Assembly: GCF_001507335.1 (NCBI RefSeq)
Contig: NZ_LMAH01000003.1
Coordinates: 496,001-560,000, forward strand
DNA from: Chryseobacterium sp. JAH
GTDB lineage: Bacteria > Bacteroidota > Bacteroidia > Flavobacteriales > Weeksellaceae
Direction of reading: 5' to 3'
Length of the DNA stretch: 64,000 nt
Part shown: positions 52,634 through 58,981 of the stretch, piece after piece
Position numbering within the stretch: position 1 is the first letter of the stretch
How the letters are laid out: each line of letters starts with the position of its first letter
The notes under the pieces: generated by a model
Seen by the model: the letters and a program-made list of their open reading frames with translations, nothing else
Told to the model about the DNA's origin: nothing
Databases searched by the model: none
Position numbers and translations under genes: made by a program

Positions 52634-54625
52634 TTATCCCTTCAAAGCCGCAATCTCATCTCGTAACTGTGCTGCTTTTATAAAATCTAGATTTTTTGCA
52701 GCGCCTTCCATTTCTTTTTGCTTCTGCGTAATTAATTTTTCTACATCTTCTGTTGCGTACGTTGCCTTGACGTCGGCAACTTTCTGCATGATCTGTTTCT
52801 GAGTATATTTTTCGTCCGGGAAATCTTTGCTTCTACCAACGAGATTTTCAGAGATCTTTTTATTTAAAGCCATTGGAACTTTACCATGTTCCGTATTATA
52901 AGCGATTTGTTTTTCGCGACGGTATTCTGTTTCATCAAGAGTTGCCTGCATTGATTTGGTAATCTTATCTGCATATAAAATGGCCCTTCCGTTTAGGTTT
53001 CTTGCTGCACGACCAACCGTCTGAATCATTGATCTTCTGCTTCTTAGCATTCCTTCTTTGTCGGCGTCTAGAATTGCCACAAGCGAAACTTCAGGTAAAT
53101 CTAAACCTTCTCTCAATAAGTTGACCCCAATTAAAACATCAAAAATCCCAAGACGTAAATCCTGCATTATCTGAATACGTTCCAAAGTTTCAACATCAGA
53201 GTGAATGTATCTTGTTCTGATTCCGAATTTTGTGAAATATTTGGTTAATTCTTCCGCCATTTTCTTGGTTAAAGTGGTCACCAATACTCTTTCGTCTATT
53301 TCTGCTCTTTTTCTGATTTCTTCCATTAAATCATCAATCTGATTTAAAGAAGGGCGAATTTCTATAATAGGATCTAAAAGCCCGGTCGGACGGATAATCT
53401 GTTCGATATATTCTCCTCCCGTTTTTTCAAGTTCGTAATCTGCAGGAGTTGCAGAAACGTAAATAACCTGATTTTGAATGGCTTCAAATTCTTCAAATTT
53501 CAAAGGTCGGTTGTCCATCGCCGCTGGAAGTCGGAATCCGTATTCTACCAAAGCTTCTTTACGGCTTCTGTCGCCGCCGTACATGGCATGAACCTGCGGT
53601 ACGGTAACGTGACTTTCGTCAATCACCATCAGATAATCTTTTGGGAAATAATCTAAAAGACAGAAAGGTCTTGAGCCAGGAAGTCTGCCATCAAGATAGC
53701 GCGAATAGTTTTCAATTCCTGAGCAGTAGCCTAACTCTTTAATCATCTCAAGATCAAGCTCTGTTCTTTCCTGAAGTCTTTTTGATTCTAAAGGTTTCCC
53801 GATTTCAGAGAAAAAGTCGACCTGCTTGACCATGTCGTCCTGAATATTTCTGATGGCACCGTTCAAGGTTTCTTTTGACGTCACAAATAGGTTGGCAGGA
53901 TAGATTTGTATCTGGTCAAAATTTCCAGTCGTATTTCCGGAAACGGGATCAAAACTCTGAATTTTTTCAATTTCATCTCCAAAAAACTGAATTCTAACTC
54001 CATTATCTGCATATGCAGGGAAAATATCTACCACATCACCTTTCACACGAAATGTACCTCTTTGGAAATCTGCCAATGTTCTGGAATATAATGCATTAAC
54101 TAAAGAATGAAGTAATGCAGTTCTTGTAGTTTTCTCACCAATTTCTAAGGAGATTAGTGATTTGTGGAATTCAGCAGGGTTTCCGACACCGTAAATACAT
54201 GATACTGAGGCAACAATCAATACATCTCTTCGTCCGGAAAGTAAACTCGCAATTGCTGAAAGTCGTAGTTTCTCTACTTCTTCATTGATGCTCAAATCTT
54301 TTTCAATGTAGGTTCCTGAACTGGCGATGTAAGCTTCAGGCTGATAATAGTCGTAGTAACTCACAAAATATTCCACAGCATTTTCGGGGAAGAATTCTTT
54401 AAATTCCATGAAAAGCTGAGCTGCCAAAGTCTTATTGTGCGCTAGAACTAAAGTAGGTTTTTGGGTATTGTGAACGACATTAGCAACGGTGAACGTTTTC
54501 CCGGAACCTGTCACCCCGAGTAGAGTCTGATATTTTTCACCGATTTCCAATCCTTCAGTCAGTTTTTCAATGGCTGTAGGCTGATCTCCGGTTGGTTTAT
54601 ATTCTGATTGAAGCGTAAATTTCAT
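52634..54625 (-). CDS. uvrB: UvrB, excision nuclease subunit B
   Basis: Helicase-like subunit that verifies DNA damage in the UvrABC pathway. Walker A LLGVTGSGKTFT (residues 35-46), the beta-hairpin FVSYYDYYQPEAYIA that locks onto DNA, DESHVTVPQ, QTVGRAARNLNGRAILYAD (motif VI), and the C-terminal UVR motif (EKLITQKQKEMEGAAKNLDF, residues about 630-660) that binds UvrC. Length of 663 is normal. Single gene on the minus strand, with a long gap upstream to the lipoprotein gene. Confidence 0.97.
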   Translation of the reverse strand: MKFTLQSEYKPTGDQPTAIEKLTEGLEIGEKYQTLLGVTGSGKTFTVANVVHNTQKPTLVLAHNKTLAAQLFMEFKEFFPENAVEYFVSYYDYYQPEAYIASSGTYIEKDLSINEEVEKLRLSAIASLLSGRRDVLIVASVSCIYGVGNPAEFHKSLISLEIGEKTTRTALLHSLVNALYSRTLADFQRGTFRVKGDVVDIFPAYADNGVRIQFFGDEIEKIQSFDPVSGNTTGNFDQIQIYPANLFVTSKETLNGAIRNIQDDMVKQVDFFSEIGKPLESKRLQERTELDLEMIKELGYCSGIENYSRYLDGRLPGSRPFCLLDYFPKDYLMVIDESHVTVPQVHAMYGGDRSRKEALVEYGFRLPAAMDNRPLKFEEFEAIQNQVIYVSATPADYELEKTGGEYIEQIIRPTGLLDPIIEIRPSLNQIDDLMEEIRKRAEIDERVLVTTLTKKMAEELTKYFTKFGIRTRYIHSDVETLERIQIMQDLRLGIFDVLIGVNLLREGLDLPEVSLVAILDADKEGMLRSRRSMIQTVGRAARNLNGRAILYADKITKSMQATLDETEYRREKQIAYNTEHGKVPMALNKKISENLVGRSKDFPDEKYTQKQIMQKVADVKATYATEDVEKLITQKQKEMEGAAKNLDFIKAAQLRDEIAALKG

Positions 54626-54779: not shown

Positions 54780-55211
54780 TTAAAACAATGTGCTGGGATT
54801 AAAGCCAGCAGCTTTAATAGCTGGAGCTAGTGTATCTGCCAAAAATTCTTTTTCTTCAGTATCCAATTCGTTCCAAGGAAGCTCGTCAACCCTTTGAGAT
54901 ACGAGTCTTAATTTTGTTTCTGAAGATTCATTCGTGATGCATATTTCTTCTAGTTTATCCAAGAATTCATTAGTTGTAGTTCTAAGAAGTAGAATTACGG
55001 GCTTATCTGATGGCATGAGTCCACGAGCTTTCCAATTTTTTGGATTTTCGTAAGTTTCCGAAGTTTTTATAGTAGCAATTGTATTTGCTAAATTGACGTT
55101 ACTCATTTTACTGTGAGTATTTAGGTTTGTAATATTATCTTTATTTTGCTTTTTACTGCAAGAATTCAGAACAATAAAAATTAAAATGGTAGAAATGTAG
55201 ATACTTTTCAT
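54780..55211 (-). CDS. putative lipoprotein
   Basis: A 143-residue protein with a signal peptide (MKSIYISTILIFIVLNSCSK) and lipobox LNSC, lipid-modified Cys 18. A polar linker follows, then a domain of about 100 residues with ARGLMPSDKPVILLLRTTTNEFLDKLEEIC and LVSQRVDELPWNELDTEEKEFLADTLAPAIKAAGF. I do not recognise the family. It probably sits in the outer membrane facing the periplasm. It is alone on this strand between uvrB and the M56 gene. Confidence 0.75.
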   Translation of the reverse strand: MKSIYISTILIFIVLNSCSKKQNKDNITNLNTHSKMSNVNLANTIATIKTSETYENPKNWKARGLMPSDKPVILLLRTTTNEFLDKLEEICITNESSETKLRLVSQRVDELPWNELDTEEKEFLADTLAPAIKAAGFNPSTLF

Positions 55212-55372: not shown

Positions 55373-57219
55373 TTATTGTGTTTTTTTGAATGCTTCAAAA
55401 CTCATAGTCAAAGGAAGTTTAAAAATGTATTTCACAGCGCTTCCATCTTTTGTTGCGGGTTTCCAGCTGATGTTTTCATTGGCTAATTTTACTGATCTAA
55501 TTGCTTCTGTATTAAATATCTCATTATTTCCACTTGCTTTTATGTTGGAAACTTCACCTTTTTCACTAATTGTAAAATTAATATTTGATTTTACTACCCC
55601 TTCATCACCCTTAAAAGCTGCACCGTTAAATGTATTTGAAACCTTCTGTCGCATTGCATTGATTCCGCCTGGATATTCCGGAACAGTAGTAACTTCTTGT
55701 GTAACATTTACTGCCGGAGAAATTGCAAGATCTTGAACCTTACGCTCGCTATTTGAATTGTTATTTGTGGATTTTAGTTCGGAAACTTTAGCTGCTATAT
55801 CTTTCTTGGGAGTGATGGTGTCTTTTTTTGTTTTGCTTTTAGAATCTTCAGAATTTACAGTAAAACTAACAGCAATATTTTTTTGAAGATTAAATTTCTC
55901 AGCATAGTCAGTTGTATAAAGGGACACAGCATAGTCAAACTTTCCGTAGTCTGGGTTTTTCGGCTGGATCTTCAATAGATAAACGTTGTAAAAGTCTGTG
56001 TTTTTGTAGCTCTTTAAAATGATGTTATCTATAATTTCCCCATTAAGAGTGATTTTGTAATCAGAATTTAAGAATTGATTAAGCTGTTTTTGAGTAGGAA
56101 TTTGTTTATTAATTTCTTGATATGAAACCCAAACAGGAATTTTGTTCCAATCTATAACATTTATTTGGTCTCGCAATTCTATAAGTTTTAGCTGCTCATC
56201 TCTTGGAACTTCTTTTTTAAATCTATCAAAATCTCTATCTCTAATAATGTCTGCATATTTATCTGTGATTTCTAAAAATTCTTTGATCGCATCATTAGAA
56301 TAAATTTTATTGACTTTTGTTGGTTGAGTTATACTTAAATAATTGTCAGCAGCTCCTTTGTCATTCGCATAAGTTCTTTCCGCAAAAATAAGAGCCAAAG
56401 CTGTAAATGCAGGAATCACCAAATACTTTTTTGCCTCCGCAAATTTTGAATTTTTTTTGGTCATCATAATAAATCTTTTTTTGGTGTTATTGAAATTGAA
56501 TTGGTGTGTTAATTGTAAATTTTGCTGGGTCAGAACCTCATTCAGAATAAGTTCCTGATAGTTTTTAATGTTTTCATTTTTGATGATAACTTCTTCATCT
56601 GCCAAAAATTCATGATTGGTAATCATCACATTTTTATAGAAGTAAATGAAAGGATTAAACCAAGAAAAAGACTTTACAACTTCGATAAGTAGTACATCGA
56701 ATGAATGCTTTTGTTTTACATGAATTTCCTCGTGAAGAAATATTCTTTCGTCAATTTTTTGATCCTTAAAATACTTTTCAGAAAGATAAATGGTGCTCAA
56801 AAAACTAAACGGCGCAATCTCTTCTTTAAGCAAAATGACATTTCGGTTCTGATAAATAATTTTTCTGCCTTTCAGTGTTTTAATTTTTAGTATTGAATAC
56901 AGCATCTTTGCAATCAATAGTCCGGAGATTACAAAGTAAATGACCAATAATAATTGAGTGTAATCAAACTTTTCCGCCTGCATTGTAGCAGGAGTCTGCA
57001 AAATCTGTTGTGGAATTTCCTGCTCAATCAACAGCACTGGTTTGTCCTTTGCGATCTCTTTGGTTTCAATCGACACAAAAGGAATTGTGTATGAGAAAAT
57101 AAGCCCAACAATAAATAAAAACGGTTGAAGGTCAATGTTTTCTCTTTTGCCAGAAATAAATAGTACAGTCCAAGCACAATTCCTGAACACAGAATTATTT
57201 TTAGAATGATAGTTTCCAT
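55373..57219 (-). pseudogene. M56 (BlaR1-like) metallopeptidase with TonB C-terminal domain, frameshifted
   Basis: The natural start is ATG 57219, three bases after the blaI stop: METIILKIILCSGIVLGLYYLFLAKEK and NRFYLLLGL, a standard M56 start. The frame then runs off at about 57098-57107; continuing one frame over gives IFSYTIPFVSIETKE, which is the expected continuation. One base is missing, and adding it gives 615 residues. The rest is intact: zinc motif H-E-E-I-H (FLHEEIHVKQKH) with the further glutamate in NHEFLADEE, membrane helices, and a C-terminal TonB domain (PEYPGGINAMRQKVSNTF). In the family the protease senses a signal and cleaves BlaI. The frameshift may be real or an assembly error. 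Confidence 0.85.
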
Positions 57220-57221
57220 GG

Positions 57222-57593
57222 CTATTCTTTTATTTCTTTGTCGATAATTTCACGAAGTTCTTTCAACTGCTTTTGACTCAATTTAGTGTTTGAGGTAAAA
57301 AATGAAGCAAACTGTGTCACCGAGCTGTTAAAAAAACGGTCAATCATAGAAGTCATTTCTTCTTTGAAATATTCACTTTTCGCAACTTTTGGAAAGTATT
57401 CACGTGAATTTCCATATAAGGTGTAGCCTACCAAATCTTTATTCTGCATTCTTTTGAGCAAAGTTGCTACCGTTGTTGATGCGGGTTTTGGTTCAGGGTA
57501 AGATTCCAGAATATCTTTCATGAAAAGTTTTTGTTTTTCCCAAAGCATTTCCATAATCACTTCTTCAGAATCTGTCAGTTTTATTTCTTTCAT
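57222..57593 (-). CDS. BlaI/MecI/CopY-family repressor
   Basis: A 123-residue winged-helix repressor. The start LTDSEEVIMEMLWEKQKLFMKDILESYPEPKPASTTVATLLKRMQNKDLVGY is the DNA-binding domain of this family (recognition helix around TTVATLLKRMQ), followed by a dimerisation region. It would bind the palindrome TTCTACAAATGTAGAA in its own promoter and be cut or inactivated by the M56 partner encoded directly downstream. In Bacteroidota such pairs are often not linked to beta-lactamases; what else it controls is unknown. Confidence 0.92.
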   Translation of the reverse strand: MKEIKLTDSEEVIMEMLWEKQKLFMKDILESYPEPKPASTTVATLLKRMQNKDLVGYTLYGNSREYFPKVAKSEYFKEEMTSMIDRFFNSSVTQFASFFTSNTKLSQKQLKELREIIDKEIKE

Positions 57594-57630
57594 GTTCTAC
57601 GTATTCCTATTCTGTTCTACAAATGTAGAA
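57594..57630 (-). promoter_or_regulatory. BlaI-type operator overlapping the -7 box
   Basis: TTCTACAAATGTAGAA at 57615-57630 is a perfect palindrome of the TACA-TGTA type that BlaI/MecI bind. On the minus strand its centre reads TACATTTG, a match to TAnnTTTG, so a bound repressor would cover the promoter. A further half-site GTTCTAC lies at 57594-57600, directly before the ATG. Confidence 0.75.
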
Positions 57631-57781: not shown

Positions 57782-58981
57782 ATGAAAAAATTACTCCTAC
57801 CCGTTTTATTAGTCTCGGCAACGATGATAGTATCTTGTCAGGGAAAAGGTAAACGCAGCGAACCTGCAGCTACAGCAGAAAAAGCAAACACCAATTACAA
57901 ACCTGCATTCGAAGGGCAAACCCGAATTGCACCAGTCAAAACAACAACGCCTTATAACGTAGAAGTGCTGAATACTTCATTAGGCAAACCGTGGGGAATG
58001 ATCAATCTACCCGACGGACGTTTTTTAATTACCGAGAAATCAGGTTTCATCAATGTGGTTTCTACAGAAGGAAAAACAATGTCTAAAATCGAAGGCTTTC
58101 CAAAAGTGGACGACAAAGGACAGGGTGGCATGCTTGATGTTGCTTTGGATCCCGATTTCAAAACAAACAACGTGATTTATTTCTGCTATTCTGAACCTTA
58201 CGGAGACGGAAATCATACAGCAGTTGCCAAAGGAAAATTATCTGCTGACCTGAAAAATATTTCAGAAGTAAAAGTAATCTTCAGAGCTACACCAACATAC
58301 GATGGCGACAAACATTACGGAAGCCGTTTGCAGTTTGACAAAGACGGAAATCTTTTTGTAAGTACCGGAGAAAGGTCAGATAAAGAAACGAGAGTTTATG
58401 CTCAGAAAACCGATAATTATTTAGGTAAAATTCTAAAAATTACCAAAGATGGAAAACCTGCAGAGGGAAATCCATTCATCGGAAAAGCCGGTTATAAACC
58501 AGAAATTTATGCTTTCGGAATCAGAAGTCCTCAGGGTTTGGCTCTGGATGAAAAGGGACAGCTTTGGGATATTGAAATGGGACCGAGAGGCGGCGACGAA
58601 ATCAATCTCATCCAGCCCGGAAAAAATTACGGTTGGGGCGATGTAACCTACGGAATTGAATACAACGGAGATAAAATCAATAGTGGTACTACCCAAAAAG
58701 CAGGCACCGAACAGCCGGTTTATTACTGGGATCCGGTAGTTTCACCAAGTGGAGTCACTTTCTACACCGGAAATATTGAAGAATGGAAAAACAATCTTTT
58801 CATCGCCTGTCTGAGTGGACAACACATTAACAGAATTGTTTTAAAGGATAATAAAGTTGTGGGTGAAGAGCGTCTGCTTTTAGACCAGAAAGAAAGATTC
58901 AGAGATGTTTTGAATGGCTCTGACGGAAATCTCTACGGAATTACCGACAGCGGAAAACTGTATAAGATTTCAAAGAAATAA
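57782..58981 (+). CDS. PQQ-dependent sugar (sorbosone) dehydrogenase-like lipoprotein
   Basis: A 399-residue secreted protein with lipobox IVSC (Cys 19). The six-bladed propeller of the GDH/YliI family is visible as FLITEKSGFINVVS, GQGGMLDVALDPDFKTN, SRLQFDKDGNLFVSTGERS, AFGIRSPQGLALDEKGQLWDIEMGPRGGDEINLI, NYGWGDVTYG and YYWDPVVSPSGVTFYTG. Such enzymes oxidise aldoses or similar sugars in the periplasm with PQQ and pass electrons to the respiratory chain. PQQ synthesis genes are not in the window, so the cofactor is assumed. It ends at a strong terminator. Confidence 0.92.
   Translation: MKKLLLPVLLVSATMIVSCQGKGKRSEPAATAEKANTNYKPAFEGQTRIAPVKTTTPYNVEVLNTSLGKPWGMINLPDGRFLITEKSGFINVVSTEGKTMSKIEGFPKVDDKGQGGMLDVALDPDFKTNNVIYFCYSEPYGDGNHTAVAKGKLSADLKNISEVKVIFRATPTYDGDKHYGSRLQFDKDGNLFVSTGERSDKETRVYAQKTDNYLGKILKITKDGKPAEGNPFIGKAGYKPEIYAFGIRSPQGLALDEKGQLWDIEMGPRGGDEINLIQPGKNYGWGDVTYGIEYNGDKINSGTTQKAGTEQPVYYWDPVVSPSGVTFYTGNIEEWKNNLFIACLSGQHINRIVLKDNKVVGEERLLLDQKERFRDVLNGSDGNLYGITDSGKLYKISKK

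What the first reader, a model, noticed from the sequence alone, without database searches (positions are those of the whole stretch)
57028..57219. Frameshift splits the N-terminus of the BlaR1-like M56 receptor
From ATG 57219 the frame encodes a good M56 start up to NRFYLLLGL, then leaves the frame near 57098-57107. The next frame carries IFSYTIPFVSIETKE, the expected next helix. The open frame starting at 57190 therefore has a false N-terminus (MFRNCAWTVLFISGK). The total length needs exactly one extra base. If real, the receptor would be inactive and BlaI would stay bound, a possible phase-variable switch in an AT-rich spot.
Basis: partly seen in the sequence, partly recalled or inferred. 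Interest (0 to 1): 0.6.

Follow-up and report, generated by a model that had tools for sequence, protein, structure and literature searches.

The report
Broken partner receptor of BlaI repressor
In this Chryseobacterium-type genome the gene for a membrane protease that should switch off a small repressor has lost its reading frame near its start; relatives carry intact copies, so it looks like one recently broken (or mis-assembled) gene and not an on/off switch, but the comparison also points to a second gene that the repressor may control.

Summary
The M56 receptor gene behind blaI is a net one base short of an open frame near 57098-57107: ATG 57219 gives a 63-aa dead end, and the frame open from GTG 57190 has a false N-terminus. 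Of 72 distinct M56 domains held, window included, 70 run in one frame through the first two helices, one is cut by a contig end, and the window is the exception. The part after the break shows no decay (dN/dS about 0.16), so the lesion is very recent or an assembly error; the assembly is not indel-rich (2 frame breaks in 409 kb compared). Phase variation is not supported. The protein is no beta-lactam sensor by sequence: M56 protease plus TonB-like C-terminus, no penicillin-binding domain found. Beyond the finding: a BlaI-type palindrome lies before blaI, and the same palindrome lies before a MORN-type lipoprotein gene in 43 of 52 genomes with this BlaI and 0 of 5 without it, a candidate second target. 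If the break is real, that target would stay repressed in this strain (inference).

The parts
57222..57593 (-). blaI-type repressor gene (Penicillinase_R, PF03965), 123 aa, intact
   Evidence: found in 126 of 173 genus genomes at E<=1e-45
57615..57630 (-). palindrome TTCTACATTTGTAGAA, predicted BlaI operator; includes a TANNTTTG -7 promoter box; core 57618-57627 ends 24 nt before the blaI start
   Evidence: TACANNTGTA upstream in 68 of 73 distinct M56 loci
57595..57600 (-). conserved half-site GTAGAA just before the blaI start
   Evidence: column counts
57028..57219 (-). true start of the M56 receptor gene: helix 1 and the first half of helix 2 in frame, then out of frame to a stop (63 aa)
57098..57107 (-). 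place of the frame break (net one base short; exact place ambiguous by alignment)
57188..57190 (-). GTG opening the 605-aa open frame; false N-terminus
55373..57097 (-). rest of the M56 receptor in the second frame: rest of helix 2, helix 3, protease, spacer, TonB-like C-terminus; 574 codons open
56720..56734 (-). HEEIH, zinc-protease motif
   Evidence: sequence; motif search; BlaR1 motif in PMC9834060 (passages)
56597..56611 (-). EFLAD, matches the EXXXD motif of BlaR1
   Evidence: sequence; motif search; PMC9834060 (passages)
57782..58981 (+). divergent glucose/sorbosone dehydrogenase-type gene (GSDH, PF07995), conserved neighbour
52634..54625 (-). uvrB (named from sequence), conserved downstream neighbour

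Best explanation
A conserved chromosomal blaI-M56 operon in which this genome carries a net one-base shortening at about codon 39 of the M56 gene. I commit to a real, very recent, strain-level loss of function. Shown: the frame break, its absence from the relatives held, the intact blaI and its palindrome. Inferred: ribosomes starting at 57219 make a 63-aa stub, the protease is not made as a properly anchored receptor, so it cannot cut BlaI in response to its signal, and BlaI, still made under its own operator, keeps its own operon and a probable second target (a MORN-type lipoprotein gene at G000:C2) repressed. The pair works like BlaI/BlaR1 (repressor plus membrane zinc protease), but the periplasmic part is TonB-like and not a penicillin-binding domain, so the signal is unlikely to be a beta-lactam.
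For: Break confirmed. N-terminus in frame in 70 of 72 distinct domains, one cut by a contig end, the window the exception. Assembly not indel-rich: 2 breaks in 409 kb compared, against 1 in 245 kb for C. aahli and 13 positions in 64 kb for G153. blaI, palindrome and neighbours conserved.
Against: The rest of the gene looks fully constrained (dN/dS 0.159 in the M56 part against G011; private amino-acid changes 28 against 34 in G011), as an error in an intact gene would also give. Both breaks seen in G000 touch or adjoin a short run of one base, the usual place for sequencing errors as well as slippage. No reads and no second strain were available.
Confidence: 0.55

Rival explanations
1. Assembly or sequencing error: the gene is intact in the living strain.
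For: No decay after the break; one isolated break beside a short one-base run; the other break found in G000 is at a run of six; a genus-mate assembly (G153) shows how common such errors can be.
Against: G000 is near complete in 16 contigs and its break rate (2 in 409 kb) is like that of the C. aahli assembly (1 in 245 kb).
Confidence: 0.37
2. Translation from a start near or after the break (for example GTG 57190) gives a shortened but working receptor.
For: The later frame is open and under purifying selection; GTG 57190 keeps most of helix 2.
Against: The first helix is lost or replaced by out-of-frame residues; the same frame ends in a stop within about 41 codons in the nearest relatives; 70 of 72 domains keep the full N-terminus.
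Confidence: 0.04
3. Phase-variable switch by slippage at the site.
For: The lesion is one base and adjoins a short one-base run.
Against: Longest run within about 30 nt is 5; the longer runs of 7 and 8 lie elsewhere in the gene; no relative is off at this place.
Confidence: 0.03
4. Programmed ribosomal frameshifting makes the full receptor.
For: Two overlapping frames together spell one protein.
Against: Relatives encode the same protein in one frame (70 of 72 domains, one cut), so nothing conserved needs it.
Confidence: 0.01

Closest known systems
BlaI-BlaR1 of Staphylococcus aureus and Bacillus licheniformis
   Same: Penicillinase_R repressor gene next to an M56 membrane protease gene; HEXXH and EXXXD motifs (PMC9834060, passages); TACA/TGTA palindrome before the repressor gene (the motif of BlaI/MecI is recalled).
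   Different: No penicillin-binding sensor domain found and far below the BlaR1 model cut-off (24.9 against 400 bits); TonB-like C-terminus; neighbours are a GSDH-type gene and uvrB, not a beta-lactamase gene.
BlaI regulons of Clostridium thermocellum (PMC8457756, passages)
   Same: Small regulons: the BlaI/BlaR1 operon itself and one or two further genes.
   Different: There the extra genes sit in the same operon or regulon of a Gram-positive; here the predicted second target lies at a separate chromosomal place and encodes a lipoprotein.

Membership tests
Peptidase M56 (PF05569) | Pfam model above its cut-off | tested here: met
   49.1 bits against 31 in the window frame after the break; 46.3 in C. 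aahli
Peptidase M56 (PF05569) | HEXXH and EXXXD zinc-protease motifs | tested here: met
   HEEIH 56720-56734 and EFLAD 56597-56611 (PMC9834060 passages)
BlaR1 beta-lactam sensor | penicillin-binding (transpeptidase-like) sensor domain | tested here: not met
   Pfam found only M56 and TonB_C in the window frame (E<=0.001) and in C. aahli (E<=1)
BlaR1 beta-lactam sensor | NCBIfam BlaR1 equivalog above cut-off | tested here: not met
   24.9 bits against 400
BlaR1 beta-lactam sensor | four transmembrane helices carrying the protease | tested here: inconclusive
   helices predicted, but pLDDT under 50 for residues 1-302
BlaI/MecI (Penicillinase_R, PF03965) | Pfam model above its cut-off | tested here: met
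   97.3 bits against 22.6
BlaI/MecI (Penicillinase_R, PF03965) | binding to the palindrome | not testable with these tools
   site present and conserved; binding needs a bench test
TonB C-terminal domain | Pfam TonB_C above its cut-off | tested here: not met
   22.6 bits against 24.6; 22.1 in C. aahli
TonB C-terminal domain | fold of the TonB C-terminus | tested here: met
   model of the C. aahli orthologue: Z 8.6, rmsd 3.2 over 87 residues to 5lw8; Foldseek best hit E 6e-4
Phase-variable gene | repeat tract prone to slippage at the switch point | tested here: not met
   longest run within about 30 nt is 5
Phase-variable gene | both states seen among strains or within a culture | tested here: inconclusive
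   no relative is off at this place, but no second strain of the species and no reads were available

The most novel reading that the evidence does not exclude
A BlaI / M56-TonB pair, widespread in Chryseobacterium, is an envelope-sensing proteolytic switch unrelated to beta-lactams; it controls its own operon and one distant gene for a MORN-type lipoprotein, and this strain is locked in the repressed state by a frame break in the receptor.
Probability: 0.35. Interest if true: 0.55.

Novelty: new variant of a known kind. Interest (0 to 1): 0.3.

Why it matters
The frame break itself is ordinary. What it led to may matter more: BlaI/M56 pairs are easily labelled as beta-lactam resistance regulators, yet this one shows no beta-lactam sensor domain and has a predicted operator before a lipoprotein gene elsewhere in the chromosome. 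That makes its real role testable. The searches I made for such a system in print found no paper holding BlaR1, BlaI, Bacteroidetes and TonB together or BlaI, MORN and lipoprotein together; the library lacks most subscription journals.

Tried and rejected
Phase variation and programmed frameshifting: rejected for want of a tract and of any relative that needs them. G153 as a second natural loss: it breaks further downstream in the same gene, but its assembly shows 13 break positions (listed positions within 10 nt merged) in 64 kb compared, so it is background. Relaxed selection as proof of an older pseudogene: not found. Plasmid or viral location: no match. Sequence search for a solved relative: none at E<=0.1. 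Structure: the first 302 residues of the model have pLDDT under 50, so nothing is claimed on that half; BlaR1 did not appear among the fold matches, which shows nothing. Genome-wide CTACANNTGTAG: 8 sites against 5 for the control pattern, near chance taken alone; the regulon idea rests on conservation. I picked 20 places from the capped listing that I took for further copies of the 14-mer; two turned out to be blaI loci. Of the other 18, 12 lie before the lipoprotein gene, a 13th (L199) has the same leader but no start was listed for it, and five (L197, L203, L204, L208, L210) lie inside open frames. Paper searches were swamped by unrelated words beginning with 'blai'.

Full report
What is there. 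On the minus strand, blaI (57222-57593) is followed after two bases by ATG 57219 of an M56 receptor gene whose stop is at 55373. The frame from 57219 encodes METIILKIILCSGIVLGLYYLFLAKEKTLTFNRFYLLLGL and then fails; the next frame carries IFSYTIPFVSIETKE and stays open to the end. The span of 1847 nt leaves remainder 2 on division by 3. The open frame from GTG 57190 overlaps the real start in the wrong frame.

Relatives. The window lies in G000, 3.87 Mb in 16 contigs, completeness 99.98%. Of 72 distinct M56 domains held, window included, 70 run in one frame from the start through helices 1 and 2; one (L032) is cut by a contig end; the window is the exception. These are the loci I fetched, not every genome of the genus: BlaI was found in 126 of 173 genus genomes. 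A stricter motif search gave 35 sequences: 32 with the signature, and three without it, namely the window and two paralogues of the same genome (L003, L004), which are in frame but carry YNR in place of FNR. Pairwise alignments with six relatives put one gap in the window, at 57106 or 57099. I do not state which change would restore the frame.

Real or artefact. I compared open frames of relatives with 704 kb of G000; 409 kb were covered at 60% identity or more. Two frame breaks appeared: this one, and one near C3:605,914 in a long, probably secreted protein (L177; type judged from its sequence). C. aahli treated the same way gave one break in 245 kb; G153 gave 13 positions in 64 kb. G000 is therefore not indel-rich. 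Both G000 breaks touch or adjoin a short run of one base. After the break the gene evolves like a working gene: dN/dS 0.159 in the M56 part and 0.166 overall against G011, with 28 private amino-acid changes against 34 in G011, G060 being the outgroup. The lesion is thus very recent or not real. I put a real mutation at 0.55 and an error at 0.37; nothing here separates them further.

Not a phase switch. The longest one-base run within about 30 nt is 5; runs of 7 and 8 lie elsewhere in the gene; G+C at the site (33%) is that of the gene (32%).

What the protein is. Pfam gives M56 (49.1 bits, above cut-off) and a weak TonB_C (22.6 bits, below cut-off), and no penicillin-binding domain. NCBIfam BlaR1 scores 24.9 against a cut-off of 400. 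HEEIH and EFLAD match BlaR1's HEXXH and EXXXD (PMC9834060, passages). In a model of the C. aahli orthologue the C-terminus has the TonB fold (Z 8.6, rmsd 3.2 over 87 residues); the first 302 residues are not usable (pLDDT under 50). It works like BlaR1 by inference, but fails the tests for a BlaR1 beta-lactam sensor. In the 23 loci listed (19 genomes) the GSDH-type gene and blaI are found in all 23 and uvrB in 22; the exception, L010, has limited flanks.

Operator. TTCTACATTTGTAGAA lies at 57615-57630; its TACANNTGTA core ends 24 nt before the blaI start. TACANNTGTA is found upstream in 68 of 73 distinct loci, two of the 68 being paralogues of the same genome; of the five without it, one (L102) is a stretch of G153 that ends too early, and the other stretch of G153 (L083) has it. 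The palindrome includes the Bacteroidota -7 box TANNTTTG (PMC6847099 and PMC9723704, passages), with a conserved TTG 19 nt before it, so promoter and operator would overlap, and part of the conservation may be the promoter's. The exact 14-mer core occurs once in G000 and in 126 of 173 genus genomes.

A second target. The palindrome recurs before a gene for a lipoprotein-like protein with a MORN_2-like stretch (PF07661, 25.5 bits, below the cut-off of 29.6), in most loci beside a gene that looks like 2-amino-3-ketobutyrate CoA ligase (named from its sequence, not from a call). In G000 it is TTCTACAATTGTAGAG, its core beginning 54 nt before the start codon. The lipoprotein was found in 57 of 173 genomes at E<=1e-15, and BlaI in 126 of 173 at E<=1e-45. 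Over all 57: palindrome in 43 of 52 genomes with BlaI (one of the nine misses, G166, is cut by a contig end) and in 0 of 5 without; a control palindrome in 0 of 57 (Fisher p 0.0005). The genomes are related, and in four of the five without BlaI the sequence before the gene is different altogether, so the p-value overstates the independence. In 17 of the 23 palindromes printed the core is TACAATTG, which is not the -7 box, so promoter conservation alone does not explain them. Binding and regulation are untested.

Literature. No paper in the searched library held BlaR1, BlaI, Bacteroidetes and TonB together, or BlaI, MORN and lipoprotein. Two held BlaR1, Bacteroidetes and M56, and seven BlaR1 and Chryseobacterium; of these I saw the listings only. 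Small BlaI regulons are described for Clostridium thermocellum (PMC8457756, passages).

Noticed in passing
G000:C2:304841-305340 (L142, L215); also L195-L214, L216-L244, L247-L266: The blaI palindrome recurs before a MORN-type lipoprotein gene in 43 of 52 genomes with this BlaI and 0 of 5 without it: a candidate second BlaI target.
   Followed up: partly
L142, L195-L214 between palindrome and lipoprotein start: A conserved inverted repeat (AACAGAATTTC...GAAATTCTGTT) fills the leader between palindrome and start codon; not folded.
   Followed up: no
55700-56350 (spacer of the M56 gene): The spacer between protease and TonB-like end diverges strongly (window to C. aahli dN 0.75) while the M56 part is close (dN 0.067); window and G011 share a spacer type, C. 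aahli and G163 another, and orthologues of about 470 aa lack most of it. It looks like an exchangeable sensing module.
   Followed up: partly
L177 near 5914 (G000:C3 about 605,914): A second frame break in this genome, in a long and probably secreted protein, at a run of six identical bases.
   Followed up: partly
L102-L106 (G153): A genus-mate assembly with 13 frame-break positions in 64 kb compared; gene losses read from it should not be trusted.
   Followed up: yes
54780-55211: A small lipoprotein-like gene between the M56 gene and uvrB, found in the same place only in G011 among the 23 loci compared (69% identity).
   Followed up: no
L140 1501-1512 (G000:C1:120452): CTACAAATGTAG 20 nt upstream of a short-chain reductase gene that looks like fabI (name from sequence); conservation not tested.
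   Followed up: no
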